From: Clostridia bacterium
GTDB lineage: Bacteria > Bacillota > Clostridia > Oscillospirales > Acutalibacteraceae
Direction: 5' to 3'
Length of the DNA: 64,000 bases
Assembly (NCBI GenBank): GCA_017466365.1
Contig: JAFTUG010000011.1
Coordinates: 1-64,000 of the forward strand
The position numbers were made by a program, and so were the translations under genes. This document shows positions 1,594 to 43,524 of the stretch, in pieces. Below the pieces are notes generated by a model that saw only the letters and a list, made by a program, of their open reading frames with translations, did no database searches and was not told the DNA's origin. Position 1 is the stretch's first letter; the number at the start of each line of letters is the position of its first letter.

Positions 1594-1622
1594 TTGACTT
1601 TTTAGTATTATTATGGTATATA
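1594..1622 (+). promoter_or_regulatory. Sigma-A-type promoter of the vWA/tubulin operon
   Basis: TTGACT (1594-1599), a 17-bp spacer and TATATA (1617-1622), about 50 bp before the start of the vWA gene, whose ribosome site AGAGGAG lies just upstream of 1672. Confidence 0.6.
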
Positions 1623-1671
1623 TTTTTATATATGCTTTAATAAGAGTGTATTGTAAAGAGGAGTTGTAACT

Positions 1672-3819
1672 ATGTTGGAGAAAATCATCAAAAAGACCGC
1701 ATCTGTTTTTCTTGCTTTTTTAATGACAATTACATCACTCTTATCTTTTTCGATTGCGGCAAGTGCGGCATCCGTATATGTGAGACCCAGAAAGTCTGTT
1801 TATTTGGTTATGGATGATTCGGGAAGCATGAATGACTACGGCAGAGAGAATGACGCCAATTATGCACTTCAAACATTTCTTGCCACCCTTGACAAAGACG
1901 ATGAAGTAAACCTTTATTTTTTAAATAAGAAAAAAGTTTACGGAGAAACCGATATTTCAAATAAAAGCAACAGTTTTATTGAGGAAATACGTTCAAATTA
2001 TCCCGACTCTCGCGGAGGAACTCCTTTTGACGCAGTAGAAGATGCGGCAAAGGACTTGCAGAAGGCTGTTAAGGAGGATTCCGAACGAGAATACTGGTTG
2101 GTTGTTATAACCGACGGCGGCTTTGATTCTGCACATAACGCTCAAAACTATCTTGATACTTTTTCAAACACTCAATTAAAAAACGGATATTATCCGAATT
2201 TTCTGTATGTCGGTGTCGGAGGCGGTGAAACCCTTACTGTTCCCGAGGGTGCCGAAAACAGATTTTTCCTTGATTCGGATACCAACATAATAAACGCCAT
2301 GGAAAATGCTATATTGCATATCACCAACAGGCAGGTAATCGTTGCGGAAGATTCATCGGCGGACTCTTTAGAATTCGATCTTCCGTATCCCGCAAGAAAC
2401 ATAGTTATTCTTGCACAAAACCAAAAAACCAAAATTGTTTCCGCAAATTCCGCTTCTGATTTAAAGCTGGATGAAATTTATGAGGTTCAATATCCGGTAA
2501 CCAATTCGGATTTGCAAAATACAACCGTATGCTACATTACGGAAAAGAGTGGTTCCAGCATATCGGCAGGACATATCGAGTTAACATTTGACACTTCAAT
2601 TTCCGCAAACGATGCAATCATAATGGTTGAACCCGCAATCGGAATCAGCGCAAAATATTTTGACGAGGGCGGTATGGAAATTAATCCCCAAGATATGCGA
2701 AAAGGGCAAACTCTCACAGTTGAAATGTCTGTATGCGATTCTGAAACCAACGCCCCGATTCCGACTACGGATTTGTTCGGCGATATAAAACAATACATCA
2801 GCGTTAACGGAACGACTTATGACGGAAAAAAGGTAACGTTCACTGTTCCTGACACAGAAATAAACATTGAAATGGTTGCCGAATTTTCCGACGGCTTGGT
2901 ACTTGATATTTATAGTGAATACGAAAATCTGGAAGAAGTCAGAACTCTCTCTCTTTTTGTTTCCGATTCAGGAAAATTTAAAGCGGATGAAGAAAACATT
3001 GATTCTGCTGAAGGAATTGTTGTAACTCCGCTCATTAACGGCACCAAGCTTTCTGAAGAAGATTTCAAGGCTTCAAAGCTTAATATTAAGGATGAAAATA
3101 TTTTTCATCATAATATTGATGTTGACAAGGATTATGACACTTGCACCTACATAATACATCCGAAGGCCGGTATCGGAAAACTGTTCACTCCCAATGAAGA
3201 GCAGATTTATGAGATTGAGTTTTCAACCGGCGAAGGAGAAACATTAACAGACGTAATCGGTGTAACCGTTAATGTAAAAATCAATTGGGTGGATATAGGC
3301 ATACGTATTCTTATCACACTTTTAGTTCTTTATCTTATCTTTGTTGAGCTTACAAGAAAGAGATTCCCCGCCGGTGCATATGTGAAGTATTTTGCGGTTA
3401 ATTCCGACGGTTCTCCCGCAAACTATCTTACTGACAGAATTTTTCTGAACCGCCCTTCATGGGAAAAGCTGAAAAACGGAAGTTATCTGCCGATACCGTT
3501 TTGCAAATACAAGGTCAAAGGCATTTGTTCCTGCGATGATATTACTATTGTTGCATCAGGCAATTCCTCATTTGCGGTTGAAGGCGTAAAAGATATAGAA
3601 AAAGAAGACGATTACGGATACAGAACAGAGACTACAACCTATGTTCAAATCGATAAGGACGGAAATGAACTGGCATTTAAAGCACCCATCAAAGACAGAT
3701 CAGAAACAACAATGCTTATGATACCTTTCGGTCGATATATCAGAAAGCATGATATGAAAAAATGTATCCGTCTTTCAACTCGCAAATATGACAAAGAAAC
3801 AAATCATCACGAAGTTTAA
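1672..3819 (+). CDS. Secreted, membrane-anchored von Willebrand factor A protein
   Basis: A 715-aa protein with an N-terminal signal peptide (hydrophobic residues 10-33, AASA-A cleavage region). A vWA domain follows, with a complete metal-ion-dependent adhesion site: DxSxS at 48-52 (DDSGS), Thr117 in GGTPFD and Asp148 in ITDGG. A long extracytoplasmic beta-rich region precedes one transmembrane helix near residues 540-562, then RKR and a cytoplasmic tail of about 150 aa. It likely binds a ligand or partner outside the membrane through bound metal. It is the first gene of a plus-strand operon; the tubulin-like gene follows after 33 bp. vWA proteins accompany FtsZl-1 tubulin homologues in a predicted membrane-remodelling system (Makarova and Koonin), which supports a shared role. 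The ligand is unknown. Confidence 0.85.
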   Translation: MLEKIIKKTASVFLAFLMTITSLLSFSIAASAASVYVRPRKSVYLVMDDSGSMNDYGRENDANYALQTFLATLDKDDEVNLYFLNKKKVYGETDISNKSNSFIEEIRSNYPDSRGGTPFDAVEDAAKDLQKAVKEDSEREYWLVVITDGGFDSAHNAQNYLDTFSNTQLKNGYYPNFLYVGVGGGETLTVPEGAENRFFLDSDTNIINAMENAILHITNRQVIVAEDSSADSLEFDLPYPARNIVILAQNQKTKIVSANSASDLKLDEIYEVQYPVTNSDLQNTTVCYITEKSGSSISAGHIELTFDTSISANDAIIMVEPAIGISAKYFDEGGMEINPQDMRKGQTLTVEMSVCDSETNAPIPTTDLFGDIKQYISVNGTTYDGKKVTFTVPDTEINIEMVAEFSDGLVLDIYSEYENLEEVRTLSLFVSDSGKFKADEENIDSAEGIVVTPLINGTKLSEEDFKASKLNIKDENIFHHNIDVDKDYDTCTYIIHPKAGIGKLFTPNEEQIYEIEFSTGEGETLTDVIGVTVNVKINWVDIGIRILITLLVLYLIFVELTRKRFPAGAYVKYFAVNSDGSPANYLTDRIFLNRPSWEKLKNGSYLPIPFCKYKVKGICSCDDITIVASGNSSFAVEGVKDIEKEDDYGYRTETTTYVQIDKDGNELAFKAPIKDRSETTMLMIPFGRYIRKHDMKKCIRLSTRKYDKETNHHEV

Positions 3820-3852
3820 GAAAAGAAAACATACAAACTATGGAGGTTGACT

Positions 3853-6800
3853 ATGAGTAATCAGGATAATGCTTTTTTAGGTGCCCGTCAGGTGCTTTTG
3901 GTAGGTCTCGGAGGAGTCGGAGGCAGAATTGTAAACACAATTATGAGAGATATGCCGAAGGAGAGACTGCCCTATACCCAGGCAATAGCAATAGATACGG
4001 ATATAAACGACATGAACGATCTCACATATGTTCCGCGAGATAATAAGATTGTTCTCGCAAGCTCACCCGGAAGCGGAAAAGCCATAACAATCGGTCAGTA
4101 TATCCAGAAGAATCCCGGCGCAAAGGACTGGTTTATCACCGAAGGAAACGCATTCCAGACTTTGATGGGTCAATCAACCAAACAGGGTGCAAAGCAGATT
4201 CGTATGGTTTCAAGGCTTGCACTTTCTGCTACCGCAAAATATTATAATCTCGAAAACAGAATAACCCGAATCATCAGTAAGCTCAACAGCAGCGACGGAA
4301 CCGTAAACAGAGACAGCCTTCTCGTTATGGTTGTTTGCTCTGTTTCGGGCGGTACCGGTGCAGGCACCGTGCTTCAGGTTCCGATGTTCCTTGAGGATAT
4401 TATCACAAAGTATTTTGATGCAAGTGCAGTAAGTATGCAGTGCGCAATGCTTCTTCCCAATCTCTTCAACCAAACTCAGGCTAACGGCAACTATTTCAAA
4501 GGTCAAGTTAACGGATACGCAGTTATGAGAGAGCTTCAAAGCCTCAACAACGGCAAGCTTCACAGGTTTGAATACATGAAGGATTACACAGAAGTTAACG
4601 GTGAAGACAGCAGAAACAAAGCTCCCTATAACTTTGTTCTTCTTTTTGATAATGCAACAAGTTCAGGTGCTACAATCAACGGCTCAACAGATAACACACA
4701 TATTCCCAACATCGCTTCTTGTCTTGCCGAATATATTTACGGACCCGCTTCTCACAAATGCACAAGCCAGCTTGACAATACTCTTGCTACCGTTTATTCA
4801 AGCGGCGGCACGGCAATTTATCGTGCCGTCGGCAAATCCTCACTTGTATATCCCGATAACATCTACAAGCAGTACGCCGTTTCAAACTGGATTCTCAGCT
4901 CCGTTTCAGATGAATGGTTAAGTCCCGATGCCGCAACAAACAAGAGATATCTCGAAGCGGTAAAGAAAAGCAGAGATGAGGGAAAGAAAAAGCCTGACAA
5001 AAACACATTTAAGCACACGAAATATTGTGAAATTATCAATGACGTAAATACTTGCAAAGGAACGTTTTTCACCGAAATCCGTTCACAGCTTGTAAATAAT
5101 ATCAACGGACAAACCAAGCATATAGCCGATATTTTCACAAAAAACATTACCGATAAGCTTGATGATCTTTTAATGAACGATCCGGAATACAGCAATAACT
5201 TTGATAACCTTGCAGAAGCCATTAAGCAAAACAAATCCAAAAATACTCATACGGATGCTTTTAAAAGACTTGAGAGAAGTTTTAATGATTTCGAGACGCT
5301 TTCCGGTAATTTTGTTGACAGCGTATTTTGTCCCTCCAATGCTCTTACAAAAGCCTTTTTAAACAAAGAAACCGACAATGTTTGCCTATATCCTTTTGTA
5401 AGAACAAGAAATCTTCATCCCATGGCATTCAGGGTATTCCTTTATCAGCTTGAAAGAATCTTTAAGAACTACTCTGAAAAAGCAGTTAAGAAGGTAGAAA
5501 ATGAAGATATTCTGTCCCTTATAAATCAGGCATCCTCTAAAAACAGAAATCAGACAGTTGAACAGCAGCTTGATACCAAAAGCGGCGAATACAAGCAAAA
5601 GCTTTACAAAAATGTTTTCTCTCAAATGCTTGTCCATGTCAGAGAATTAATTATTGAAATTGAAGCTTTCTTTGATGACCTTAACATCCTGAAAACCAAA
5701 TTTGAAGGTGTAAGCGCAAGCTGCTTAAGAAGCATCAACAGCTTTGATAACGAAACTCGCACAATAGTCGGAAGCCGTGAGGGCATGATTGCTTGCTGGA
5801 ACGACATAAAATCCCAAATCCATGAAGGTGATGCAGAGGGTGAGGACGTTGTTGACAATGATATCTCCGTTAAAATAGACGAATTGATTTATACGAGCTA
5901 TTATAAATGGATCGCTGCACCCGGTAATCAATCCAAAAACGATGAAGGAACAGATGTTTTCAGACCCAGAACCGATTACACAAAGATTGTAAGCGAGCAT
6001 CTCATTTCAAGCTTTTACAAGAAGATTAACGAGCAGCACAGCAAATCTTTCCCTGCAGATATTCTTAAGGCATCAATTTTTGATGCTTATGTAACCCGTG
6101 CATATCGCGAAAGAGCTGCAGCTAATCCCAAGTTTAATCCTGACAGCTTTGCGTTCTCTGTAGCTGATGCTGAGCTTGAGTTTGAGTCCGATACCGACAC
6201 TCCGACACTTGCTGCAGAATATCTCAACAGAAAGCTTTTGAACATTGTTAAGAAAGCCGAACCTTTGAGCGGCCCCCTCTATGCAAAAAATGCTGATGAG
6301 GACTATTTCGCAAGAGATCTCTATTTCAACAAAGATATTCTTAAGAAAGAAACAGAAATTGATCCTTATTCAGAAACAGGAACCAGAGAGGTTCTCAAAA
6401 CAGCAGAGTTTATCCCCGGTGTTAGCACATCTTCAGTAGATACTTTTACAGTTCAGTCTGACCCCGTTGAAAACATCAGCAAACATCAGATTTCATGCTT
6501 CAGCTATACCGGCGGTCTTGAGTTGAGTGACTTTGAAAACATGCAGGATCCCGTTTCCGGAACCTATGACCCCACCGACGGACGTTGCTATTATAATGCG
6601 TACCGCAATTATATCAATGCCGTGATGAACACCACAAAGCACAACATTACTCCGCACCTTCACAAGGAATGGCACCTTGCAGGTCGTCTTGATGATATTT
6701 CCGACAGCCATACAGATTCTGTAAATGCAAATGCGGCAAAAGCCTTTGTTTACGGCTTCTTGCTGAAAAACATGATCAGAATTGTTGACAACGGATATGT

Positions 6801-7521
6801 TAATATCGGAATTGCAAATGAACCCATATTTACCGATATGCCGGGCGCACTTAACGGTGTAATTGAGTTCAGACCGTTTACAAATGTTGAGCATGCCAAT
6901 TTTTCACCAACCAAAAATCAGACAAACAGAATCCTTTATGAGATATTCCAGTATCTCCGCAACATGCCTGAATTAAGAACAAGAATTATTAAGCTCGGAA
7001 ACAAGCTTATCGAAGAAGCAAAAGCAAATAAAAAGGGCTCCGTATTCTCATACAGCATACAGCCTGAAGAATGTGCAAAATGCGATGTGTATGAAACGAT
7101 AATAGATGTTCTTGACGGCTTCTATCAGCATGCAAGATTTTCCGAGCTTCACGATGAAATGAAAAATGACATCAAAGCTCTCGGAAACATGTTCGGCACA
7201 TTGTGTGACGTTACAATCGATGTTTGTGCAGCAATATATGCTTCACCCAAAGACAGACTTAAGGCATATCAGTATTTTGTTGATAAACTTTATGATATAG
7301 CCATATGTGACGGAGACGATAATAAAATTTCCGATGATGCCGATAAAGAAGCCTTGCAGATTTCTGACACTTCAGTTGAGGCTGCCATGTTTGAAGCCAT
7401 GTTCAACGAAGAAACGATCGAAACGGAAAATTCCGATTCAAGCAAACCGTTCGCAAAAGGCGGAGATTTCGACAGAAATGCCATGAACAGCAGAATGGAA
7501 GCTTACCTTAATAAAAATTAA
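3853..7521 (+). CDS. Large tubulin/FtsZ-like GTPase (Tubulin_2, FtsZl-1 type)
   Basis: A 1222-aa protein whose N-terminal third shows the tubulin/FtsZ nucleotide fold: GLGGVGG at 18-24 and the tubulin signature GGTGAGT at 166-172 inside a VCSVSGGTGAGT segment. The remaining roughly 800 residues are family-specific, mostly helical and polar, with no transmembrane segment. It probably binds GTP and may polymerise beneath the membrane. ATG 3853 is preferred over the upstream TTG 3847 because GGAGG (3842-3846) sits 6 bp before it. It is the second gene of the operon after the vWA gene; the two-TM protein follows after 15 bp. The assignment to the Tubulin_2/FtsZl-1 family rests on motif and context; its activity has not been shown. 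Confidence 0.85.
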   Translation: MSNQDNAFLGARQVLLVGLGGVGGRIVNTIMRDMPKERLPYTQAIAIDTDINDMNDLTYVPRDNKIVLASSPGSGKAITIGQYIQKNPGAKDWFITEGNAFQTLMGQSTKQGAKQIRMVSRLALSATAKYYNLENRITRIISKLNSSDGTVNRDSLLVMVVCSVSGGTGAGTVLQVPMFLEDIITKYFDASAVSMQCAMLLPNLFNQTQANGNYFKGQVNGYAVMRELQSLNNGKLHRFEYMKDYTEVNGEDSRNKAPYNFVLLFDNATSSGATINGSTDNTHIPNIASCLAEYIYGPASHKCTSQLDNTLATVYSSGGTAIYRAVGKSSLVYPDNIYKQYAVSNWILSSVSDEWLSPDAATNKRYLEAVKKSRDEGKKKPDKNTFKHTKYCEIINDVNTCKGTFFTEIRSQLVNNINGQTKHIADIFTKNITDKLDDLLMNDPEYSNNFDNLAEAIKQNKSKNTHTDAFKRLERSFNDFETLSGNFVDSVFCPSNALTKAFLNKETDNVCLYPFVRTRNLHPMAFRVFLYQLERIFKNYSEKAVKKVENEDILSLINQASSKNRNQTVEQQLDTKSGEYKQKLYKNVFSQMLVHVRELIIEIEAFFDDLNILKTKFEGVSASCLRSINSFDNETRTIVGSREGMIACWNDIKSQIHEGDAEGEDVVDNDISVKIDELIYTSYYKWIAAPGNQSKNDEGTDVFRPRTDYTKIVSEHLISSFYKKINEQHSKSFPADILKASIFDAYVTRAYRERAAANPKFNPDSFAFSVADAELEFESDTDTPTLAAEYLNRKLLNIVKKAEPLSGPLYAKNADEDYFARDLYFNKDILKKETEIDPYSETGTREVLKTAEFIPGVSTSSVDTFTVQSDPVENISKHQISCFSYTGGLELSDFENMQDPVSGTYDPTDGRCYYNAYRNYINAVMNTTKHNITPHLHKEWHLAGRLDDISDSHTDSVNANAAKAFVYGFLLKNMIRIVDNGYVNIGIANEPIFTDMPGALNGVIEFRPFTNVEHANFSPTKNQTNRILYEIFQYLRNMPELRTRIIKLGNKLIEEAKANKKGSVFSYSIQPEECAKCDVYETIIDVLDGFYQHARFSELHDEMKNDIKALGNMFGTLCDVTIDVCAAIYASPKDRLKAYQYFVDKLYDIAICDGDDNKISDDADKEALQISDTSVEAAMFEAMFNEETIETENSDSSKPFAKGGDFDRNAMNSRMEAYLNKN

Positions 7522-7536
7522 AAGGGATGTATTTTT

Positions 7537-9162
7537 ATGGAATATAGGGCTGTTGCAGTTGTTGACGGAACTTTTTTCAAAGAACTGATTGAATACAAAA
7601 GCATCATGGAGCAGCTTGACGATCGTTTCAAAGAAATTCAATTTATACATAAAGATAACCTCGAGCAAGCAAAAGGGAGCGGAGAATTCCTCTCCGCTCC
7701 TCTTGCTTTTTTTCTGTACGGTTCTTTAGAAAAATCAGAATTCAACAACGCCTTGGAGTTCGCCAAAAACTTCAAAAAGGAATATGAGGTTAACAACTGC
7801 ATTGTTGTTTTTCCTGCTCCTGCCGATAATGTATATACCGAAGAAATAATAAATACAGAGGATATCAGCTTTGAAAGGTTTGATTTCGTTCAGACTATTC
7901 ACCTGATACATGAGAGCTACTCACCCGATGAAGAAATTGCACTTAAACTGCTTTCTCTTATCAGCGGGTTTATTTCCGCATGCCCTGATGAAAATAACAT
8001 AGCCTTCGGCAGAAGCTATATAACGGCAAAAATCGAATTGAATTATGATAATTATATTGCATCCGTCATTCTTTCTTTTGGAGCAATTAAAGATGAAGTT
8101 GATTCTATCAATGAAGAAATACGTGAAATCAACGAAAAATTAGATTCAATCAAAAGCATGAAGAAAAAGAAGTATGAGTGCAAATTTTCATCCTCGGAAT
8201 TATCATACAAGCCCACCGATGCCAAAGAAGTCCCCAAAAAGCCCGAACAGATGTTAGACTTCTGCAAACAGCTTTCTTCAAAAGCATCAAAAGACTATGA
8301 GGCATTTTCCGAACAATCTGACTCCGATGTTGTGAAAGCTCAACACACACTGTCTGATACGTTCTCACTGTATTTTACCAAGGAAAGAATCGATCCCAAC
8401 ATAGTTACCGAATCAGATTTTGCGAATGACGAAGTAATTCCGGAACCCCCTCATACGGTAGAGAGAACAACCGAAGTTTCTGTTCCGGGTTCATCTATGT
8501 TCAGCCGGCTCATACCGCTTTACCGCAGTGCGTGCGAAAATCCCGAAGCAACCGCAAAAGAAAAACTTCGTGTTTTTTTGATTGCGCTCGGAGCAATCCT
8601 GCCCGCTGCAGGCATATGTTTAATACACTTGGTAAAATCATTAAGTGCATCATTATCGATAAGACAATATATAATTGCAATTTTAATTCTGATTGCGGTC
8701 ATCTGTGTTTCCTTTTTAATTTCAATCTTAATTGAATATCTGCATAAAAACAAATTAAGAAATTACATGAAAAAAGCAGCTCAAAGACATGCTCTTTTTT
8801 GCGAGGATTCATCAAAATCTGTCACGGCGATAAGAAAATATATTAACAAATATGTTACCGTTGCAATTAACAGCTTTATGAAAACCAAACGGCTGGATTT
8901 CTATTCTTCTCAAATTGTTGAATTAAAGAAAAGAAAATCGGAGCTTTCTCAAAAAGCCGATAAAATCAGACAAAGTGAAACAGTGTTTGAAAAGTCCAAA
9001 AAAGAAGATTTTTCGGACAAAGACAAATACAATGATGCTTCTGATTTATTATCTTATGTATCTGCACACAGAAATACACTCAACACATCCAACGTGCCGG
9101 CACCTGCAATTGAAAACAGCATCTGGATTGAGTCTGTTTCATTTGAAATTGTTGTTTCATAA
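7537..9162 (+). CDS. Two-TM coiled-coil protein of the tubulin-like cluster
   Basis: A 541-aa protein of unrecognised family. Residues 1-165 look like a compact globular alpha/beta domain. A charged coiled-coil stretch around 185-215 is rich in Glu, Ile and Lys. Two hydrophobic helices at about 345-370 and 380-405 form a membrane hairpin, followed by a second basic, coiled-coil-prone tail with KxxxL/E patterns to about 500. Both soluble parts would then face the cytoplasm, where they could tether the tubulin-like GTPase to the membrane (inference). It starts at ATG 7537 after AAAGGGA, 15 bp behind the tubulin-like gene and 38 bp before the zincin gene. No catalytic motif is visible. Confidence 0.65.
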   Translation: MEYRAVAVVDGTFFKELIEYKSIMEQLDDRFKEIQFIHKDNLEQAKGSGEFLSAPLAFFLYGSLEKSEFNNALEFAKNFKKEYEVNNCIVVFPAPADNVYTEEIINTEDISFERFDFVQTIHLIHESYSPDEEIALKLLSLISGFISACPDENNIAFGRSYITAKIELNYDNYIASVILSFGAIKDEVDSINEEIREINEKLDSIKSMKKKKYECKFSSSELSYKPTDAKEVPKKPEQMLDFCKQLSSKASKDYEAFSEQSDSDVVKAQHTLSDTFSLYFTKERIDPNIVTESDFANDEVIPEPPHTVERTTEVSVPGSSMFSRLIPLYRSACENPEATAKEKLRVFLIALGAILPAAGICLIHLVKSLSASLSIRQYIIAILILIAVICVSFLISILIEYLHKNKLRNYMKKAAQRHALFCEDSSKSVTAIRKYINKYVTVAINSFMKTKRLDFYSSQIVELKKRKSELSQKADKIRQSETVFEKSKKEDFSDKDKYNDASDLLSYVSAHRNTLNTSNVPAPAIENSIWIESVSFEIVVS

Positions 9163-9200
9163 AATTTCAAGTTTAATTATAAATAGTCGGAGGTGGCAAT

Positions 9201-13238: not shown

Positions 13239-13252
13239 TTCCTATATGCAAC

Positions 13253-13284
13253 AAAAAGCACCTTGAAATTCAAGGTGCTTTTTT
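13253..13284. terminator. Bidirectional terminator between convergent operons
   Basis: Stem AAAAAGCACCTTGA / TCAAGGTGCTTTTT with a tiny loop. It serves both the plus-strand vWA-to-zincin operon (ends 13238) and the minus-strand M48-to-immunity operon (ends 13301), separating the two halves of the cluster. Confidence 0.85.
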
Positions 13285-13300
13285 CTGTGTGATTCATACA

Positions 13301-13696
13301 TTATTTTGATGAATTGGTAATAACATATTCCAGCAATGAATCAGAATGCTCCGTAAGCGTTCCTTTGTGGAAAATATAAACCTTACCGGAAGCCTCCTGC
13401 ACGGCAAGAGCTCCATCAAAATGCAAATCCTCAAGAACATAATATTTATCAGGAAGCATAAAACGCTCCCTTGCTTCTTTTGTTGTTTTAACAACATCAA
13501 GCCATTTAACATTTATAATGCTTGTAAGCTCAACGTTTTTTGCAGATACCTGACCAAAGTTCATCAAACAAAGCTTATAATCATTAGCAAAGAAAAGGTC
13601 AAGTTCAAATTCTGCTTTTTCGATTTGAGCTTCCGTTACCGGTTCGCCGGCACTGAAGGTATTAACCTTTTTTAAAGACTCCAAGAAATTGTTCAT
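13301..13696 (-). CDS. SUKH/SMI1-KNR4 family immunity protein
   Basis: A 131-aa cytoplasmic protein with the SMI1/KNR4 pattern: an N-terminal AEFELDLFFANDYKLCL segment with FG in NFGQVS, an ELTSI strand, WLDVV, YYVLEDLHFDGALAVQ, and a short C-terminal helix (SLLEYVI). SUKH proteins neutralise a variety of toxic nucleases in polymorphic-toxin systems. Its ATG overlaps the stop of the upstream LHH-nuclease gene by one base (TAATG), the tight coupling expected of a toxin and its antidote. It is the last gene of the minus-strand operon. The family call is secure; that it specifically protects against the neighbouring LHH protein is inferred from position. Confidence 0.85.
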   Translation of the reverse strand: MNNFLESLKKVNTFSAGEPVTEAQIEKAEFELDLFFANDYKLCLMNFGQVSAKNVELTSIINVKWLDVVKTTKEARERFMLPDKYYVLEDLHFDGALAVQEASGKVYIFHKGTLTEHSDSLLEYVITNSSK

Positions 13697-14307
13697 TAGT
13701 AATCACCATCCTCAATATATTCAAGAGCCGCGCCTCGATCTATCCAATAATCGCTTCTTTCCTTGTTGAAATCATCACGGTCTATTTCACTGGTTTTTGT
13801 CTTATCATGCAAAACATTGTCGTTTCCCACGCCTCGGTGTTCATCTCTTGTCAGCTCTGCCAAAGGAGAATCTTCCTTTTGACCTATGTGGTGAAGCTCA
13901 ATAATATCGCCGTCTTCCGTCATTGGGCTTAATCCTTCAGCCATTCTTTGAGCATTATCACGTCCTTTGTGATCGCATACTCCATGCAATTCGATATCAC
14001 TTCTGACAAGCGCATGTTTAGGTGGGTCTCCGTAAACCTCCTCATGCAGATTTGCATTTTTATATACATCAAGTTCTTCTTTTGAGGAAACATAATTATT
14101 TATTTCATCGCTATACGGACTGTTTTCTTTTATATCGCCAACTGAATTCTCCCCATCGCTTTTGCTGTTATCAAGATTGCTCTCGACATCATCCACTCTT
14201 TCCTGATATTCGGTTTCTTCCTCCGGAGAGTAATTATCGCTTTCGATGTTAGTCTCCGTGCTTTCATTTACTTCCGAGGTTTCGGAAGTTGAAATTTCAC
14301 TACTCAT
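13696..14307 (-). CDS. LHH-type HNH/EndoVII nuclease toxin with acidic N-terminus
   Basis: A 203-aa protein. Residues 1-75 are a low-complexity, Ser/Thr/Glu-rich acidic segment with no signal peptide and no visible WXG/LXG or T6SS adaptor. Residues 115-195 form the LHH nuclease: NAQRMAEGLSPM, then IIELHH (His139, His140), EHRG (His157), NVLHD (His167) and YWIDRG. This matches the HNH/Endo VII toxin family named for its conserved Leu-His-His, which cleaves nucleic acid. Full polymorphic toxins carry a large trafficking domain; here only the short acidic leader is present, so export would depend on an unfamiliar signal. AGGAGG precedes ATG 14307. It lies 39 bp after the Ig-like gene and overlaps the SUKH immunity gene. 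This is the most likely cargo of the cluster. Confidence 0.83.
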   Translation of the reverse strand: MSSEISTSETSEVNESTETNIESDNYSPEEETEYQERVDDVESNLDNSKSDGENSVGDIKENSPYSDEINNYVSSKEELDVYKNANLHEEVYGDPPKHALVRSDIELHGVCDHKGRDNAQRMAEGLSPMTEDGDIIELHHIGQKEDSPLAELTRDEHRGVGNDNVLHDKTKTSEIDRDDFNKERSDYWIDRGAALEYIEDGDY

Positions 14308-14346
14308 TTTATCCTCCTGATTTTATTCTTTTATGTTTATCCGGGA

Positions 14347-16170
14347 TTAAACAGCAATTGATATGCAATATATTAAAGCAGCAATTGCCGAAATACATAT
14401 AATAACAGACGGAGCCAAGCTTGTTGTTTTGGTGTTGCCTATTATGCTTTGCTCAAACTCTTTATTTTTATTATCAACAAAAACAGATAACAGACCGAAA
14501 ACAGCCGCCGCCAAGCCGCTCAAAATGCCGTAAGGAATTTCAATGAAAGATAAAATCAATGTTAAGATAATAATAAACACTGCAATCGCTTTAAAGGGAT
14601 TGCTTTTTTTATATAATGTGCTTATAACCTCAACATCGGTTCCGGCTTTGACTTTGCCGTCTGCAGAACAGAACTCAACAGAAGCTTTTCCAAGATGTTC
14701 CGTGCTGATAGTATGTCCGTCATATTTTATAACGTCTCCGTTTTGAACAATATTCCAGTATACATTCGTATCAAAAGCATTATTGGGAACAGCAGTAACC
14801 TCAAACGGAATTTTCTGTCCGATAGTTGCTTTTATACAGTTGCCATATACTGACGGAACCTTAAGCTCCGAAACTTTGGGTTTTACCGTAATCTCAACAC
14901 ATTCGCTGACGCTTTCTGCTTTAAGATATATACGGCATATACCGGAAGATATCGCCTTTACCTGACCGTCTTGAGAAACCGTTGCAATTCCTGAATCTGA
15001 TGATATCCACTCAAGAGAATGAACATTATCTGCATTTTCGGGATACACGGCAGCATTTAACCAAACCGAGCCTTCCTCTTCAAGAATATATGCATTACTG
15101 TCAAATGTTATCTTGTTAATCCTGTTTCTCTTTATAACGGTAACGCTTTTTCTTAAGATAGGAACTATGTCTCCAACCTGATAAACTTCAACTGTTGCTT
15201 CTCCGCTGTTTATTCCGACCAATCTGTCAGGAAATGCCTGAACCACCTTTTCGTTAAGCGACTTCACATATATATCGGACGCAAAAGCTCCTTCAGGTAT
15301 GGTTCGTATTCTTACAGGTGTGCTGCTGCCGGACTCCAACACGCTCTCAAAATCCGCCAAAACAACGGCTTCAACAGTTGTGACCGCTTCATACACGGCA
15401 TAATTGCAGCTCTTAAGCTGATCTGCAAGTTTAGAGACCGTCGGCTTAATCAAAAGATAATCTATTATCTCTCGGAAATATCCAATAAGCTCATCAAGCG
15501 TCATCTCCAAAACAAGCAAATCCTTTTTGACCTGTATTGTTCTGAATCCTTCCGCCATAACAATTATCATGCTTCTTTTTCCGACAAAAGAATTAGTTCT
15601 TAAAAATGCATCGGCATTTTTAAAGCTGTCAAATATGAATATGCCGGTTTTGGCTGCCGAAACATCACCTGACAGCTCTGCCTTCACGGTACAAAGATTC
15701 TGATAATTCTCAAAAGCCAAGAATTCTCTTTCGTATGAAACCGAATCGTTTGACATCACAAGGGCATTCACAAAGCTCTCCTGCATACAAGCATTTTCAA
15801 AAAACACAGATAACAGAAGCTCTTTATCATAATGGATTTCGTGCTTTATGAGGGCTTCCGAAAGAATCTTACACCTGCTTGAAACAGGAATATTATTTTT
15901 AAAATCCTCGTGTAACAAACTTTTGCAATCCGGACAATTACCGTCAACAAAAGATTTCAGAACGGCAGCTTCAAACTTATCTGAAACAAAAGTTAAAGAG
16001 AAGCTGTCATTAAGCTCATCTGATATGCCCTGACACATTTTACAGCACCAAAAATCAAATGGCTCTAAAAGATAATTCGTTATTGAGCTGTAAGGAGAAA
16101 ATGCCTCTCCGTCAACAAGTATTTTGCTTTTGCGTTGGTAAGGATTATAAGTCAAAACAACATCATTCAT
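14347..16170 (-). CDS. Ig-like (Big_2) protein with N-terminal cysteine motifs and three C-terminal TM segments
   Basis: A 607-aa protein. Near residues 40-90 are paired cysteines (CCKMC and NCPDC) that could hold zinc. A mixed alpha/beta region follows to about 260, then a run of beta-rich Ig-like domains; the clearest is a Big_2-type repeat (YPENADNVHSLEWISSD...GIATVSQDGQVKAISSG). The last 90 residues contain three hydrophobic helices. There is no signal peptide, so orientation of the Ig-like part is uncertain. ATG 16170 with AGGTGGG just upstream is preferred over a TTG at 16191 that overlaps the ATPase stop. It sits between the HerA-like ATPase (17 bp upstream) and the toxin gene. It is probably a structural membrane component; function unknown. 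Confidence 0.65.
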   Translation of the reverse strand: MNDVVLTYNPYQRKSKILVDGEAFSPYSSITNYLLEPFDFWCCKMCQGISDELNDSFSLTFVSDKFEAAVLKSFVDGNCPDCKSLLHEDFKNNIPVSSRCKILSEALIKHEIHYDKELLLSVFFENACMQESFVNALVMSNDSVSYEREFLAFENYQNLCTVKAELSGDVSAAKTGIFIFDSFKNADAFLRTNSFVGKRSMIIVMAEGFRTIQVKKDLLVLEMTLDELIGYFREIIDYLLIKPTVSKLADQLKSCNYAVYEAVTTVEAVVLADFESVLESGSSTPVRIRTIPEGAFASDIYVKSLNEKVVQAFPDRLVGINSGEATVEVYQVGDIVPILRKSVTVIKRNRINKITFDSNAYILEEEGSVWLNAAVYPENADNVHSLEWISSDSGIATVSQDGQVKAISSGICRIYLKAESVSECVEITVKPKVSELKVPSVYGNCIKATIGQKIPFEVTAVPNNAFDTNVYWNIVQNGDVIKYDGHTISTEHLGKASVEFCSADGKVKAGTDVEVISTLYKKSNPFKAIAVFIIILTLILSFIEIPYGILSGLAAAVFGLLSVFVDNKNKEFEQSIIGNTKTTSLAPSVIICISAIAALIYCISIAV

Positions 16171-16187
16171 ATTTGACCCACCTGTAA

Positions 16188-19100
16188 TCAATTGAATATC
16201 GTTTCAAAGACTGCCAAGTATCTGTCATCATTTCTGAAATCTTTCATTAAACAGAACAACAAATACTTTATGGTCTTTATTTTTGTTTGTTCGTTATCAA
16301 AAACAACGAAGCTGTCCAAAGCCGCAAAAAATGTTTCATACCATTTTTTGATGGACTTGGTCGGCAGAGCTTTTAAATCTGTTTTGAGAAGCTTAACTCC
16401 TTCAAAATCGCAAGGGATAGCCTTCGCCATGCCTCCGCAGTTTATAATGCTTGTCAGCACCTTTGCAAAATCATATTTATTTGCAGACTCTATCTTTCCG
16501 AAGAAGCTGATCAAAAGCTCATTGATTTCGCTTTTTTTAAGAGAAGGAAGTTCAGAAGCCAAAACAATTTCGGTTAAAGAATCCGGACAGTATGCACCAC
16601 TTTCCTTTTGTTTGAAAAGCTCTGTCACAAGCTTACCGTTAAGGATGGCAAGCGATTTTTTATCAACCTTCTGAATTTCGCCCTTAATTTTAGGGCAGTA
16701 CGGTACAGCAGTAAGAACCGATTCTAACCAATCGTTTTGCCATACAACCGCCTTTCCCTTGGGGAGCTTTGAAATTTCTTTGATTTGATTGTCGTTTAAG
16801 CACAGCGCTCTGCCCACTATATCGCAATCCGTGGCTTCCGGCAATCTCATTATTATTTTTGTGTTTGTGTTTTTTATTGCAGAAATATCAACCGATGTAG
16901 GCGACTGATCAATTATTATAAAACCTTCGCCGTAAGTACGCATTTCCGCTATGGAGTTGCAAATCATTTCAACTGATTTTCCCGCAAGATTCGATGATTC
17001 CTGCGATTGGTCATGTGAAACTCGCTTGAGCAAATTATGCGCCTCTTCAAGCACTGTTACATGTTTTAAAGGAGCATTTTCCTCTTCTGCGGTTGACATG
17101 CGGTATTCATTCAATTTTAAAACAAGAATACCCATAATTAATGATTTTGTTTCCGAAGAACCTACTCTGCTGATATCCACTATGGTGTTCTCATCAAAAA
17201 GAACTCGGTCCGCAATATCGAAAGCATCGGAAAAAACCTGCCCTGTTATTCCCACAGTCAATGATTTAATTCTTGTTGCCAAAGATCCGATATAATCGCC
17301 TTTTGTATCTGCAGAATAAGACGATTTATTAATTATTTCAGGAAGAACATCCAACACATCTTCAAAAGTCGGGAACTTATTTCTTCCGTTATCAAAATGT
17401 ATCGAGCTTGTCAAATCCCAGCCGCATCTCTCATATGCTCTTTCAACGGAATCCTTCAGTATTGCCGGCATAGCGGCATAAAGAGGCCAACATGCGTTAA
17501 ATATTTCTATCAGCCTGTCGATATGTTCGAGAACATGGATGTTTTCGTGGAACTTGAACGGATTGATTTTAAGCATGCGGTAATAATCAGGGTTTGTTGT
17601 GAAAATATTGATATTTTCCATTCCGCCCAAATCCTTTTTGTACTCACCTTTTGCAGGTTCAATAACGAGGAACTTAATTCCTTTATCCGCCAGTTGAGTC
17701 AAAATCTGATATGCTGTATTTGACTTGCCCGAACCGGTCGAACCGGAAATAAAGCAATGAGACGTTAACGAATTAACATCCAGATCAACCGTGGTTTTTT
17801 CTTCCTGCCCCATATGATAGATATTGCCCAGGCAGATATGAGGGCTGTCATTGCAGCTGCCATCGGTTGAAATAACATTACGTCCGAATTCAGCCATTTT
17901 TAAAGAAGTAACTCCCGTAACAGAACGTCTCGGCAATCCCAGAAGAACAGGCAGTTCACTTCCGCTTATCAACGATGCGGGGGTAACCTGCTGAACGCTG
18001 TATTCCGGGAAAATATTAACCTCTATTTGGGGATGAATACAATAACCGATATATTCCAGCAACCTTCTTGTATTCGCTTGGTTGGAAGAATCCCAAATAT
18101 TAACAAAAGAATTTTCCAACGAAGATTTCTGACCTGACATCAAAGCCTTATACGAATTTGCTGCAACAACCGCTGTTTGTATGTCTTCGGAAATAAAATA
18201 TCCTGCACACTCCCACATTCCGTACGCTTCGCATTCCTTGATTCTTTCCAAATGACCGTCGATTTGACTCATAAGGTTTTTTATGGATTTGTTTTCATGG
18301 TTCAAGGTAAGATTTCTGGAATCACCTTTTGTTATCGTTTCGCTCTGATTGCTGCCTTGGGAGCTGCCTTCGCTTGTGCCTTCAGAAACCGCATTCGCCC
18401 ATGCATTGCTTGAACTGTATCCTGTGCTTGAGCTTGTAGAGCGGCTTTTGTTTGTATTAAAGAAACCGAAGCCGAAGCCGTGTCCGTGAGAAACAGATGA
18501 TGATTCCGAAGTGTTTTTGCTTCGGGTCAATGTGACAGAATTTGAAACACTTCTGTTGATAGTATCGGAAAAGCTTTTGAATGTTCCGTCAGAAACGGCT
18601 TTGCTGTCATTTTTGCCATATGATAAGGAAACACCCGAAAGAGGCGATAAGGTTGAATAAAGCTCTTCCAAGCCGCGTTTTCTCTCCTCCAAAGCAGGCT
18701 TGCTTAAAGGAGTTGCCAAAATAACGGCGGTATATGTACTTCCCTTCATTGTGTCTATAAACTTTTCAATTCCCTGAACAAAGTTTTCTTTCTCTTCATC
18801 TCTTGTTGACGGAATTACCGAAACACCGGCAACGTTTTTTGAAGAGGAGCAATCCGTGTTCAAAAGTGTATCCGAGAAAAGCTTTTCAATACGGTTATTT
18901 CTCAATGCGGTAACATCGCTTCCCGGGAAATTACCCATCAAGCCTTTTTCCAGAATAACTCCTGCGGTGGCAACATTGTAACGGGAATAAACTCCGAGAT
19001 AAAATTCGATTTTTTCGGAATTGCTGTCTATAATCAGCACTGCCGTGCTGCCCAAATCCTGCAAAGCACTGTAAACGCTTATAAGCTTATCGTTTATATC

Positions 19101-19316
19101 TTCATCTTCGTTAAATACAAACTTATTTACTTTGAATAAACGTATATTTTGATGCTTTTTTAATTCATCAGGCATCGGAACAACAGGAAAGCCGCTTAAA
19201 CCGATAAGATAATTGCGGTTTACAAACACATCGGCAAAAGACAAACCCTTTTCAATTTCAGGATTGTAATTGTGAAGCGAATCCGTATCATTTTTAGCTG
19301 TAATAGTATATGGCAT
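16188..19316 (-). CDS. HerA/FtsK-superfamily DUF87-type ATPase
   Basis: A 1042-aa protein. The N-terminal half is variable and includes a striking Ser/Gly/Thr/Asn-rich low-complexity stretch around residues 255-340. The ATPase core begins after FISGSTGSGKSN, the Walker A (about 525-533). VIEPAKGEYKKD follows, as in HerA and conjugation-type motors; Walker B is HVTVLEEAH (about 751-760) and a further strand reads GFIIIDQSPTSVD. Such hexameric motors move DNA or protein through membrane pores. ATG 19316 is chosen because AGAGGT precedes it; the longer reading upstream lacks a ribosome site. It lies 22 bp after the M48 protease. No helicase partner (NurA) is present, which argues against a DNA-repair HerA and for a secretion or remodelling motor (inference). 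Confidence 0.85.
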   Translation of the reverse strand: MPYTITAKNDTDSLHNYNPEIEKGLSFADVFVNRNYLIGLSGFPVVPMPDELKKHQNIRLFKVNKFVFNEDEDINDKLISVYSALQDLGSTAVLIIDSNSEKIEFYLGVYSRYNVATAGVILEKGLMGNFPGSDVTALRNNRIEKLFSDTLLNTDCSSSKNVAGVSVIPSTRDEEKENFVQGIEKFIDTMKGSTYTAVILATPLSKPALEERKRGLEELYSTLSPLSGVSLSYGKNDSKAVSDGTFKSFSDTINRSVSNSVTLTRSKNTSESSSVSHGHGFGFGFFNTNKSRSTSSSTGYSSSNAWANAVSEGTSEGSSQGSNQSETITKGDSRNLTLNHENKSIKNLMSQIDGHLERIKECEAYGMWECAGYFISEDIQTAVVAANSYKALMSGQKSSLENSFVNIWDSSNQANTRRLLEYIGYCIHPQIEVNIFPEYSVQQVTPASLISGSELPVLLGLPRRSVTGVTSLKMAEFGRNVISTDGSCNDSPHICLGNIYHMGQEEKTTVDLDVNSLTSHCFISGSTGSGKSNTAYQILTQLADKGIKFLVIEPAKGEYKKDLGGMENINIFTTNPDYYRMLKINPFKFHENIHVLEHIDRLIEIFNACWPLYAAMPAILKDSVERAYERCGWDLTSSIHFDNGRNKFPTFEDVLDVLPEIINKSSYSADTKGDYIGSLATRIKSLTVGITGQVFSDAFDIADRVLFDENTIVDISRVGSSETKSLIMGILVLKLNEYRMSTAEEENAPLKHVTVLEEAHNLLKRVSHDQSQESSNLAGKSVEMICNSIAEMRTYGEGFIIIDQSPTSVDISAIKNTNTKIIMRLPEATDCDIVGRALCLNDNQIKEISKLPKGKAVVWQNDWLESVLTAVPYCPKIKGEIQKVDKKSLAILNGKLVTELFKQKESGAYCPDSLTEIVLASELPSLKKSEINELLISFFGKIESANKYDFAKVLTSIINCGGMAKAIPCDFEGVKLLKTDLKALPTKSIKKWYETFFAALDSFVVFDNEQTKIKTIKYLLFCLMKDFRNDDRYLAVFETIFN

Positions 19317-19338
19317 ATTTTTACCTCTGAATTTAAAT

Positions 19339-20241
19339 TCAATATTGGGAATACGACTGAAGCTTTTCAATTCTTAACGATGTTTTGGGATGAGATGAAT
19401 TCAAAGCTGCCCACAAGCCCTTTGAATCTGAACCGCCAAGCTTTCCGAGAACATTGGCGAGCTGATTTCCAAAGCCTAAATTATATGCATATTCATCTGC
19501 AAGGAATTCGTTTTCTCTTGATGAAGCCATGCAAATAAGAACACCTATCTTTGTCCATAACCATATGCATGCCGAAAGCACCGTATCAATAAAAATTCTC
19601 TTTATGAATGCGGTAAGTATTGCGCCCCAGCCTCTTTTTGTGAAAATACCGGCAATGATGGCGGTAATAAAAGAGAAAAAGTCAACCACTCTTTGCCAAA
19701 TCCAGAACAATCCCGTTACAATCAAATTGCCTGTAGCAACAAACAGAATGATATCGGTATCTTTATGAGCAAGGTGACCGAATTCATGGGCAAGAGCTCC
19801 TTTGATTTCTTCATCAGAAAAAGCAAGGAAACCTTTTGTTATACATACTGTTTGTCTTCCCGTAGCAAAAGCATTGGGGCTTTCATCATCGCTCAAGAAA
19901 AACTGAATGTTATCGTTCAGACTCGGGGTTGCTTCCTTTGCTCTTGAGTAAACCTCATTGAATAAAGGCTCAAGCCTGTTTAAAAGAGCGGGATCTTTTA
20001 TTTTTTTGCAGTGCTGCTGAAGTCTGAGAAGATATTCCCCTACAGGCGACAATGCAATAACAACCGACAGAAGATATAAAGCAAAGCCCGCAAGGCAGCC
20101 TACCCATAAATCAACGCTGCCGCTGTATTCCGCATACATTCCGCCTATAAAAGTAAGTAAAGCCGCATTAAGTATTATCCAAATCAGCACTCCGATATTG
20201 CTCTTTTTGGTAATGTTTTTTAAGAAATCCAATAAATACAT
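19339..20241 (-). CDS. M48 family membrane zinc metalloprotease (HtpX-like)
   Basis: A 300-aa protein with two N-terminal TM helices (about 15-37 and 45-66). The zinc site is ALAHEFGHLAH (His152, Glu153, His156) with third ligand Glu245 in SRENEFLADE. Two further hydrophobic segments lie between the ligands, as in HtpX. The upstream block SPNAFATG is also typical of the family. It would cleave membrane or membrane-associated proteins at the cytoplasmic face. It is the first gene of the minus operon that continues to the HerA ATPase, Ig-like protein, toxin and immunity genes, so it may mature a component of that machine rather than act in general quality control (inference). A palindrome-overlapped promoter lies upstream. 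Confidence 0.88.
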   Translation of the reverse strand: MYLLDFLKNITKKSNIGVLIWIILNAALLTFIGGMYAEYSGSVDLWVGCLAGFALYLLSVVIALSPVGEYLLRLQQHCKKIKDPALLNRLEPLFNEVYSRAKEATPSLNDNIQFFLSDDESPNAFATGRQTVCITKGFLAFSDEEIKGALAHEFGHLAHKDTDIILFVATGNLIVTGLFWIWQRVVDFFSFITAIIAGIFTKRGWGAILTAFIKRIFIDTVLSACIWLWTKIGVLICMASSRENEFLADEYAYNLGFGNQLANVLGKLGGSDSKGLWAALNSSHPKTSLRIEKLQSYSQY

Positions 20242-20294
20242 AATTTTCTCCTCAATTCTTCTTTGATATATTTATTTCATCTGCTTGACATATG

Positions 20295-20361
20295 ATAATA
20301 TAAGTATATCGCAGGGTAGAATTATACTTATATTATATATAGAAAAAAATTATTCTGTCAA
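20295..20361 (-). promoter_or_regulatory. Promoter and 14-bp palindromic operator of the M48/HerA/toxin operon
   Basis: On the minus strand TTGACA (20361-20356), an 18-bp spacer and TATAAT (20337-20332) form a consensus promoter. A perfect 14-bp inverted repeat (20295-20308 and 20323-20336, arms ATAATATAAGTATA and its complement, 14-bp spacer) covers the -10 box and start region, consistent with repressor control. Confidence 0.65.
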
Positions 20362-42467: not shown

Positions 42468-42656
42468 ATTTTGCTCCCATCATATTTTATTGATATTATG
42501 TAACTGTGCCAATATGTAAATATAATACGTGAACTTTATTTTTACAAATAAAATTACTACTATACACAATAAGGATATCGCAATTTACTTTTATATCAAG
42601 GCCACTTGTAAAAACGTTACTTTTTTCGACAAAAATGCTGTTTTTCTAAAACGAAA

Positions 42657-42688: not shown

Positions 42689-42697
42689 TTGTTCTAA

Positions 42698-43522: not shown

Positions 43523-43524
43523 TA

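What the first reader, a model, noticed from the sequence alone, without database searches (positions are those of the whole stretch)
1594..20361. Convergent two-operon machine: tubulin-like GTPase, vWA, HerA motor, two zinc proteases and a toxin/immunity pair
Seen: nine genes in two convergent operons sharing one terminator (13253-13284). Tubulin signature GGTGAGT, complete vWA MIDAS, HerA-type Walker A/B, HEFGH and HELTH zinc sites, LHH nuclease and SUKH immunity. Known: the FtsZl-1 family is found with vWA proteins in a predicted membrane-remodelling system with no experimental function. Inference: the GTPase and motor could build a membrane-associated device that exports or releases the LHH toxin, with the SUKH protein protecting the producer. 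I know of no described system with this set.
Basis: partly seen in the sequence, partly recalled or inferred. Interest (0 to 1): 0.88.

Follow-up and report, generated by a model that had tools for sequence, protein, structure and literature searches.

The report
HerA motor with swappable toxin cassette
Two neighbouring gene clusters that looked like one machine are better read as two separate modules, one of which belongs to a widespread family, for which I found no description, that pairs a DNA-pump-like motor, often with dynamin-like membrane proteins, with interchangeable toxin and antidote genes.

Summary
The nine genes are real and the motifs check out. The one-machine reading is not supported. 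The plus-strand half (vWA, Tubulin_2, 541 aa, zincin) is a recurrent FtsZl-1-type operon; 19 of 21 such regions hold no match to the HerA family's toxin or immunity models. Tubulin and HerA meet in 3 of 345 genomes (Fisher p 0.12).

The minus-strand half is the interesting part. Its HerA belongs to a large family whose loci mostly read dynamin-like, dynamin-like, small tail-anchored protein, HerA, toxin, immunity. Of 80 loci, 72 have two same-strand genes right behind HerA. Toxin type changes at least 25 times on the HerA tree, no immunity cluster serves two toxin clusters in 72 pairs, and different toxins share N-termini (35 pairs; 0-3 against shuffled controls). The window holds a rarer variant: M48, HerA, a Big_2 protein with the dynamin partner's first domain but no GTPase, LHH nuclease, SUKH immunity.

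Polymorphic toxin system: well supported. HerA as the toxin's exporter: plausible, not shown; intracellular defence is the main rival.

The parts
1672..3819 (+). vWA protein, 715 aa, TM-like window at residue 9 and at 535, MIDAS DDSGS (module 1)
3847..7521 (+). Tubulin_2 / FtsZl-1 GTPase, 1224 aa, GGTGAGT (module 1)
7537..9162 (+). 541-aa protein with two TM-like windows; sits where other loci have a larger gene, only marginal sequence similarity (module 1)
9201..13238 (+). 1345-aa membrane protein with four N-terminal TM-like windows and C-terminal HELTH zincin; homologous over 1088 columns to the last gene of other tubulin operons (module 1)
13253..13283 (.). hairpin terminator with U-rich tails on both strands, between the convergent operons
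13301..13696 (-). SUKH-family immunity protein, 131 aa; matches the model of the immunity genes beside LHH toxins in 11 other HerA loci, 2.2e-30 (module 2)
13696..14307 (-). LHH (HNH/EndoVII) nuclease toxin, 203 aa, acidic N-terminal half, no TM-like window (module 2)
14347..16191 (-). 614-aa adaptor: residues 7-76 match the first domain of the dynamin-like partner DLP2, no GTPase, Big_2 domain, three TM-like windows at the C-terminus (module 2)
16188..19370 (-). HerA/DUF87 ATPase with a Ser/Gly-rich low-complexity stretch, 1060 aa (module 2)
19339..20241 (-). M48 (HtpX-like) membrane metalloprotease, 300 aa, probably the first gene of the minus operon; no phmmer match (E 1e-4) in 98 other HerA loci
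20332..20361 (-). consensus-perfect sigma-70-like promoter (TTGACA-18-TATAAT) of the minus operon

Best explanation
Two independent modules share a terminator. Module 1 (+) is an FtsZl-1/Tubulin_2 operon (vWA, tubulin, membrane protein, zincin). Module 2 (-) is a polymorphic toxin system built round a HerA-family ATPase. Shown by sequence, for the family: a conserved HerA followed in most loci by one interchangeable toxin gene and its matching immunity gene; toxins of different catalytic families carry related N-terminal stretches; a membrane-anchored or dynamin-like partner accompanies HerA. In the window's clade the dynamin-like partner is replaced by a Big_2 protein that keeps the partner's first domain. 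Inferred: the HerA hexamer sits at the membrane on this adaptor, recognises the N-terminal stretch of the toxin, and moves the toxin, held harmless by its immunity protein, out of the cell or into a neighbour, with dynamin-like GTPases (or, in the rarer clade, Hsp70/DnaJ or M48) doing the membrane or folding work. The LHH nuclease would cut nucleic acid in target cells lacking the SUKH protein.
For: 72 of 80 HerA loci have two same-strand genes, each within 300 bp of the one before, behind HerA. Of 66 first genes scanned (window plus 65 of 68 distinct), Pfam gives Colicin-DNase 32, WHH 32, LHH 11, Endonuclea_NS_2 6, GH-E 3, papain-like Gln_amidase 1. Of 64 second genes (window plus 63 of 66): SMI1_KNR4 29, SUKH_6 27, DUF6985 15, SUFU 2, YezG-like 2, Ank 1. 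No immunity cluster serves two toxin clusters in 72 pairs. 35 protein pairs (35 proteins, 8 cluster combinations, several near-copies) with different C-terminal clusters share N-termini at E<=0.01, best 8e-21 over 88 aa (NS_2 L112 vs LHH L113); against shuffled N-termini ten runs give 0-3 pairs. Toxin type needs at least 25 changes over 70 labelled tips of the HerA tree. DLP2 in 63 and p222 in 53 of 68 loci with at least 4.5 kb upstream, by models built from these same loci. The nine Big_2-type HerAs, window included, are one clade, SH-aLRT 100, quick tree without bootstrap. Annotated plasmids show the same operon: Lactococcus cremoris pF27B and E. coli pTW10590_133. The window's LHH and SUKH match the family's LHH and immunity models at 1.4e-42 and 2.2e-30.
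Against: No export has been shown. The toxins have no known secretion domain and 1 of 75 has a TM-like window; in the gene lists, which I did not annotate fully, I saw no recurring cell-wall or outer-membrane part, although the operon occurs in monoderms and diderms. HerA's solved relatives bear HerA or helicase-type names, PADLOC's HerA models match it, and DLP1 resembles the Eleos dynamins LeoA/LeoBC (1.5e-8). Further toxin or immunity homologues beyond the pair are rare (4 of 80 loci). 8 of 80 loci lack the pair (three have one gene, five none; in L121 and L165 the contig stretch ends there). In the window's own clade a recognised toxin with immunity gene is clear only in the window and G197; G658 has a sub-threshold TNT domain, L195 a sub-threshold SUKH hit, L194/L196/L197 none by Pfam. 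The window's LHH N-terminus was not shown to be shared. M48 has no counterpart in other HerA loci.
Confidence: 0.55

Rival explanations
1. Intracellular defence: HerA, dynamin-like or Big_2 partner and nuclease form a complex that senses phage or plasmid entry and releases the nuclease inside the same cell; the SUKH-type protein is an antitoxin that keeps it silent until then.
For: PADLOC HerA models match; anti-invader 'HerA/FtsK capture systems' are described in PMC10853773 (passages) and PMC12839542 (passages); the dynamin DLP1 is related to LeoA/LeoBC; no export signals; found on conjugative plasmids and beside tyrosine-integrase-like genes, by eye; same gene set in Gram-positive and Gram-negative hosts.
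Against: Strict toxin/immunity pairing with families known from intercellular toxins and N-terminus/C-terminus modularity are what competition between kin selects for; known HerA defence effectors do not, as far as I recall, come with swapped immunity proteins. NCBIfam HerA_antiphage scores 45 bits against a cut-off of 800.
Confidence: 0.3
2. All nine genes form one machine in which the tubulin-like GTPase and the HerA motor together export the LHH toxin.
For: Adjacency in the window and, with a different HerA subfamily, in G280; 2 of the 3 genomes with both genes have them near each other.
Against: 19 of 21 tubulin regions lack matches to the family's toxin/immunity models; 98 HerA loci lack Tubulin_2; co-occurrence 3 of 345, Fisher p 0.12; convergent orientation and a promoter-like site of its own for the minus run.
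Confidence: 0.05
3. HerA moves DNA rather than protein, and the cassette is an addiction or element-competition device of a mobile element: the nuclease destroys rival or incoming elements and the immunity gene enforces retention.
For: HerA/FtsK motors classically pump DNA (recalled); CedD (DNA import) is among the nearest NCBIfam models, 2.2e-30, far below its cut-off; plasmid and integrase contexts.
Against: Cargo includes toxins that do not target DNA: papain-like Gln_amidase, TNT in G280; I saw no relaxase or DNA-binding partner recur in the gene lists, not searched systematically.
Confidence: 0.1

Closest known systems
Polymorphic toxin systems (Zhang et al. 2012, PMC3482391; passages)
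   Same: Interchangeable toxin domains (LHH, WHH, GH-E and others), SUKH immunity next door; in our family also SUFU, YezG-like and Ank.
   Different: The routes named in the passages seen (T2SS, T5SS, T6SS, T7SS, PVC, TcdB/TcaC) do not fit; HerA/FtsK appears there as the YueA-like ATPase of T7SS. 'dynamin' does not occur in the held part of the text (300,000 of 357,715 characters).
FtsZl-1/vWA system (Makarova and Koonin 2010, PMC2875224; abstract and one section)
   Same: Module 1: Tubulin_2 protein next to a vWA protein with intact MIDAS, membrane proteins around it.
   Different: No P-loop GTPase, protein kinase or OmpA-type partner in the window's operon by Pfam; instead a membrane zincin.
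GAP1-N2 tubulin systems (Kaur et al. 2020, PMC7159879; passages and one section)
   Same: Tubulin plus vWA with extracellular position.
   Different: The Firmicutes version has two tubulins, GAP1 and a GTPase; the window operon has one tubulin and none of the others.
HerA-based anti-phage systems and HerA/FtsK capture systems (PMC10853773, passages; PMC12839542, passages and part of the references; PADLOC models)
   Same: HerA-family ATPase with a nuclease.
   Different: Here the nuclease type swaps together with a cognate immunity protein; scores are far below the antiphage HerA cut-offs. PMC10853773 holds neither 'GTPase' nor 'immunity protein'.
Eleos / LeoA-LeoBC dynamins (PADLOC models; biology recalled)
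   Same: Two neighbouring dynamin-like proteins in most relatives of module 2; DLP1 matches LeoA/LeoBC at about 1e-8.
   Different: DLP2 gets no PADLOC match; HerA, toxin and immunity are added; no DLP2-like match in the window's assembly.
Type VII secretion (EssC) and T4SS-mediated bacterial killing (recalled)
   Same: FtsK/HerA-superfamily ATPase could drive toxin export.
   Different: No WXG100/LXG domain among 66 toxins; a single DUF87 domain; VirB channel genes not searched for.

Membership tests
Polymorphic toxin systems | Variable C-terminal toxin domain joined to shared N-terminal part | tested here: met
   met for the family: 35 cross-type N-terminal matches, best 8e-21, against 0-3 with shuffled N-termini; for the window's own LHH protein no shared N-terminus was shown
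Polymorphic toxin systems | Cognate immunity gene directly downstream | tested here: met
   72 of 80 loci; no immunity cluster with two toxin clusters in 72 pairs; window LHH overlaps SUKH by one base
Polymorphic toxin systems | Toxin domain from a known polymorphic family | tested here: met
Polymorphic toxin systems | Recognised trafficking domain or signal (LXG/WXG, RHS, PAAR, signal peptide) | tested here: not met
   no such Pfam family among 66; 1 of 75 with a TM-like window. This limits the claim about the route, not about modularity
Polymorphic toxin systems | Toxin acts on other cells | not testable with these tools
   needs a competition assay
FtsZl-1 (Tubulin_2) system | Tubulin_2 domain with tubulin GTP loop | tested here: met
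   2.6e-39
FtsZl-1 (Tubulin_2) system | Adjacent vWA protein with MIDAS | tested here: met
   window VWA_2; 20 of 21 upstream genes, window included, hold DxSxS near the N-terminus
FtsZl-1 (Tubulin_2) system | Frequent (not universal) kinase, divergent GTPase or OmpA partner | tested here: not met
   no such Pfam match in the four genes
GAP1-N2 tubulin system | GAP1 and GTPase, two tubulins in Firmicutes | tested here: not met
   one Tubulin_2 in the assembly, which is 79.6% complete; no GTPase in the operon
Anti-phage HerA (NF042943/NF042944) | Curated family score | tested here: not met
   45 and 27 bits against 800 and 850
NF033849 serine-rich protein | Curated family score 650 bits | tested here: not met
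   113 bits in the window, 48-131 in five relatives: a relative, not a member
Eleos | LeoA and LeoBC dynamins | tested here: not met
   no DLP2-like match in the window's assembly, a search without positive control there; DLP1 of relatives matches weakly
Type VII secretion | WXG100/LXG substrates and EssC with several ATPase domains | tested here: not met
Type IV secretion | VirB channel components | not tested
   no search was made for them

The most novel reading that the evidence does not exclude
The family is a dedicated, previously unrecognised protein-delivery machine: a HerA hexamer anchored by a small tail-anchored protein and aided by a pair of dynamin-like GTPases (or, in the window's clade, a Big_2 adaptor with Hsp70/DnaJ or M48) exports interchangeable toxins across both Gram-positive and Gram-negative envelopes, perhaps in membrane vesicles, by reading a short N-terminal tag.
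Probability: 0.35. Interest if true: 0.9.

Novelty: new variant of a known kind. Interest (0 to 1): 0.7.

Why it matters
A compact operon with a motor, membrane GTPases and swappable toxin/immunity pairs, with 503 related stretches in GTDB genomes at a loose threshold (capped list, may include more distant HerAs) and copies on natural plasmids of Lactococcus and E. coli, would be either a new toxin delivery route or a new kind of toxin-armed defence. Either answer can be tested in a harmless dairy bacterium. It would also give a concrete function to bacterial dynamin pairs and to this serine-rich class of HerA ATPases, whose roles are, as far as I recall, unsettled. For the window itself the useful result is that the tubulin operon should be studied separately.

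Tried and rejected
One-machine reading: rejected on co-occurrence and neighbourhood data, with the G280 proximity told above. Defence-system filing: PADLOC gave HerA and weak LeoA/LeoBC matches only. T7SS filing: no LXG/WXG among 66 toxins. Phage origin: 2 of 50,697 phage records match the window HerA at 1e-20, both without annotation and from human faeces, and 8 IMG/VR loci match the family, with tyrosine-integrase-like genes in L194 and L197 by eye; read as integrative elements. A search with the whole 614-aa protein gave matches in 71 of 345 genomes, mostly over its Big_2 part; its N-terminal domain gave 5 of 391, one of them a DLP2. A scan of viral contigs with the whole 614-aa protein found nothing. 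E. coli: the HerA gene is in 1 of 5426 genomes at blastn sensitivity; one search counts 1176 genomes, but of 40 rows shown (of 1277 records) 39 match only the last ~110 bases of the query, mostly annotated as IS256-type elements. M48 as a core part: no match in other HerA loci. The 541-aa gene is only a positional counterpart of the larger genes.

Limits of counts. Four of 25 tubulin regions (G152, G243, G089, G049) dropped out because my simple ORF picker chose opposite-strand frames there; counts are over 21 regions and 22 tubulin genes, and small genes could be hidden in the same way elsewhere. Absence of toxins there means absence of matches to models built from the HerA family's own toxins and immunity proteins. 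The 80 HerA loci are the best-scoring of 503 stretches, so biased to near relatives. At least five contigs stand in both the whole-genome and the genome contigs sets (equal contig lengths), so these sets were not added up, and one of them is counted twice in the 98 loci. C-terminal cluster 0 lumps several Colicin-DNase/WHH types, so 25 changes is a floor under that grouping. The five loci without DLP2: L168, L174, L179, L153, L183; by eye L168 has another GTPase there (printed for L168, L183, L153 only), L153 and L183 a DLP2-like N-terminus without GTPase.

Literature. Ten searches of open-access PMC were answered; in the capped listings shown I saw no paper on HerA, dynamin-like proteins and toxin/immunity pairs together. 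No preprint server and few subscription papers are held, so absence in print is not established. Papers opened: PMC2875224, PMC7159879, PMC3482391, PMC11868833 (outline and abstract), PMC12839542, PMC10853773, none read whole.

Full report
OBSERVATION. The finding describes nine genes in two convergent runs. All nine ORFs are present at the stated places, and Pfam supports vWA, Tubulin_2, HerA/DUF87, M48, Big_2, LHH and SUKH above curated cut-offs. The zincin of the 1345-aa protein is below cut-off, but HELTH stands in 9 of 17 genes at that position, window included. The terminator at 13253-13283 is a 14-pair hairpin with U-rich tails both ways. A consensus-perfect promoter lies upstream of M48 on the minus strand. 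The window starts at base 1 of contig C5 of a 2.06-Mb assembly estimated at 79.6% complete, so nothing further upstream of the plus run can be read.

TWO MODULES. The window's tubulin protein has relatives in 25 of 345 genomes of the order and its HerA in 17 of 345; three genomes have both (window, G136, G280), no significant excess (Fisher p 0.12; with only the nine genomes holding close HerAs, 2 of 9, p 0.13). In G136 they lie on different contigs. I read 25 tubulin regions; 21 gave a usable tubulin gene (22 genes). A same-strand gene of at least 500 aa precedes it in 21 of 22 cases (MIDAS-like DxSxS near the N-terminus in 20 of those 21), a 450-900-aa same-strand gene follows in 19, and one of at least 900 aa comes next in 17. 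The window's 1345-aa protein is homologous to those last genes over 1088 columns (hhalign probability 100), whereas the 541-aa protein is only a positional counterpart. Matches to the HerA family's toxin or immunity models occur in two of the 21 regions, the window and G280. Conversely none of 98 HerA loci contains Tubulin_2; the one weak hit is an FtsZ of 324 aa. Against a full separation: in G280 a HerA of another subfamily (30% identity), followed by LHH, SUKH and TNT genes, sits within 8 kb of a tubulin gene, next to a truncated second tubulin gene. Two near pairs out of three co-occurrences is, by rough estimate and in no call, more than random placement would give; I read it as both modules gathering in conflict islands, which was not tested.

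THE HERA FAMILY. By record title they are mostly Bacillota (Lachnospiraceae, Oscillospiraceae, Paenibacillus, Bacillus, Clostridium, lactic acid bacteria, Selenomonas, Veillonella), with Brachyspira, Treponema, Leptotrichia and one Bacteroidales bin. The usual order is dynamin-like ~450 aa, dynamin-like ~750-850 aa (Dynamin_N 5e-14 and 1e-18 in L112), a ~200-aa protein with a C-terminal TM-like segment (50 of 53 seed proteins), HerA, then two small genes. Of 68 loci with at least 4.5 kb upstream, 63 have DLP2, 53 two dynamin-like genes and 53 the small protein, by models built from these loci. 75 of 80 loci have a same-strand gene within 300 bp behind HerA and 72 a second one.

THE CASSETTE. 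The first small gene is a toxin of changing type: among 66 scanned, Colicin-DNase and WHH models match 32 each, LHH 11, Endonuclea_NS_2 6, GH-E 3, papain-like Gln_amidase 1. The second is an immunity-type protein: SMI1_KNR4 29, SUKH_6 27, SUKH_5 23 (overlapping), DUF6985 15, SUFU 2, YezG-like 2, Ank 1 of 64. No immunity cluster pairs with two toxin clusters in 72 pairs. Between toxins of different C-terminal cluster, 35 pairs share N-terminal sequence at E<=0.01, the best at 8e-21 over 88 residues; the pairs involve 35 proteins and are not independent; the same search against shuffled N-termini gave 0-3 pairs in ten runs. On a tree of 92 HerAs the toxin type changes at least 25 times over 70 labelled tips. 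These are hallmarks of polymorphic toxins. The toxins have no known secretion domain and only 1 of 75 has a TM-like window.

THE WINDOW'S VARIANT. The window HerA belongs to a clade of nine (SH-aLRT 100 on a quick tree) in which I saw no dynamin-like gene near HerA and a Big_2-type protein stands instead. Residues 7-76 of the window's 614-aa protein match positions 6-77 of the DLP2 model, six of seven other such loci tested match it too, L195 not, and a profile of these N-termini finds the start of a true DLP2 in G438. So it keeps the partner's first domain without the GTPase, and in the window it ends in TM-like segments; several relatives lack that end. The clade is rare: four of 391 genomes of the class, window included. 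Neighbours vary: Hsp70 and a TPR protein with a sub-threshold DnaJ match in G658, similar genes by eye in L194, L196, L197; WHH toxin with SUKH in G197; a transglutaminase-like gene in G589; LHH with SUKH and an M48 protease in the window. A 7-kb gut contig holds, by eye, integrase, HTH gene, HerA and the start of a protein like the 614-aa one. No Pfam match was found for the candidate cargo genes of L194, L196 and L197, so the toxin link is thinner in this clade than in the family. The window's own LHH and SUKH match the family's LHH pair models at 1.4e-42 and 2.2e-30.

NAMED EXAMPLES. The conjugative plasmid pF27B of Lactococcus cremoris F.2.7 carries dynamin, dynamin, two hypothetical genes, ATP-binding protein, HNH endonuclease, hypothetical. 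The IncI plasmid pTW10590_133 of E. coli carries dynamin, dynamin, hypothetical, ATP-binding protein, HNH/ENDO VII nuclease, SMI1/KNR4; it is the only match to this HerA gene in 5426 complete E. coli genomes at blastn sensitivity.

MECHANISM. Shown by sequence: conserved motor and membrane partners, exchangeable toxin, matching immunity. Inferred: HerA works at the membrane on a tail-anchored adaptor and handles the toxin through its N-terminal stretch. Two readings remain. Delivery to other cells explains immunity swapping and modular N-termini best. Intracellular defence fits the company HerA and dynamins keep elsewhere (HerA anti-phage models; LeoA/LeoBC; capture systems, passages), the lack of export signals, and the occurrence of the same operon in cells with quite different envelopes. 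I put delivery at a little over one half and defence at about one third.

KNOWN OR NEW. The toxin and immunity families are largely those of Zhang et al. 2012 (passages), where HerA/FtsK appears in the passages seen as the T7SS ATPase. Module 1 is of the FtsZl-1 kind without the GAP1-N2 parts of Kaur et al. 2020. HerA scores far below each NCBIfam cut-off listed, including the serine-rich NF033849 and the archaeal DNA-import motor CedD (CedD paper, abstract). Ten literature searches, with capped listings, showed no description of the combined system; most subscription papers and preprints could not be searched. I therefore call it a new variant of a known kind: a polymorphic toxin system with an unrecognised core machine.

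Noticed in passing
window 734-1456 (+): A cas6 gene (TIGR01877 1.8e-34, above cut-off) directly upstream of the vWA gene near the contig start; G272 has a cas6 homologue (3e-19) about 9 kb upstream of its vWA-tubulin operon. Possible recurring neighbourhood with CRISPR.
   Followed up: partly
L241 7553-10387; L194, L196, L197: In the window's HerA clade the HerA/Big_2 pair is followed by Hsp70 and a DnaJ-TPR-like protein (for L241, by eye in the others), a chaperone pair next to a toxin-handling motor.
   Followed up: partly
L195 11420-13433: Three small genes (327, 97, 215 aa) begin with a related stretch around GNFDG/DSFKE/GNFDE (by eye), as if a row of tagged cargo genes; the last is followed by a sub-threshold SUKH hit.
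   Followed up: partly
L236 7911-8711 (G317): A 266-aa protein with an HExxH motif and no Pfam match stands between HerA and the WHH toxin: perhaps a peptidase toxin or processing enzyme.
   Followed up: no
L153 6584-7810; L183 5255-7948: Proteins with a DLP2-like N-terminus (by eye) but no dynamin GTPase in the DLP2 position; suggests that this N-terminal domain, not the GTPase, is the essential adaptor.
   Followed up: no
G280 C3 245524-258002 (L093): Truncated second tubulin gene followed by a HerA, LHH, SUKH, TNT run and, further on, a TIR/LRR-like gene (by eye): possible insertion of a HerA cassette into a tubulin conflict locus.
   Followed up: partly
L185 (Bacteroidales MAG) 11326-13437: Zincin-like first cassette gene (HESRH, by eye; one search lists one SprT-like match without naming the member) followed by a second toxin/immunity pair: tandem cassettes.
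   Followed up: no
window 42000-58000: GC of 0.30-0.37 in every 2-kb step from 42 to 58 kb against 0.35-0.48 elsewhere, which may mark a foreign stretch.
   Followed up: no
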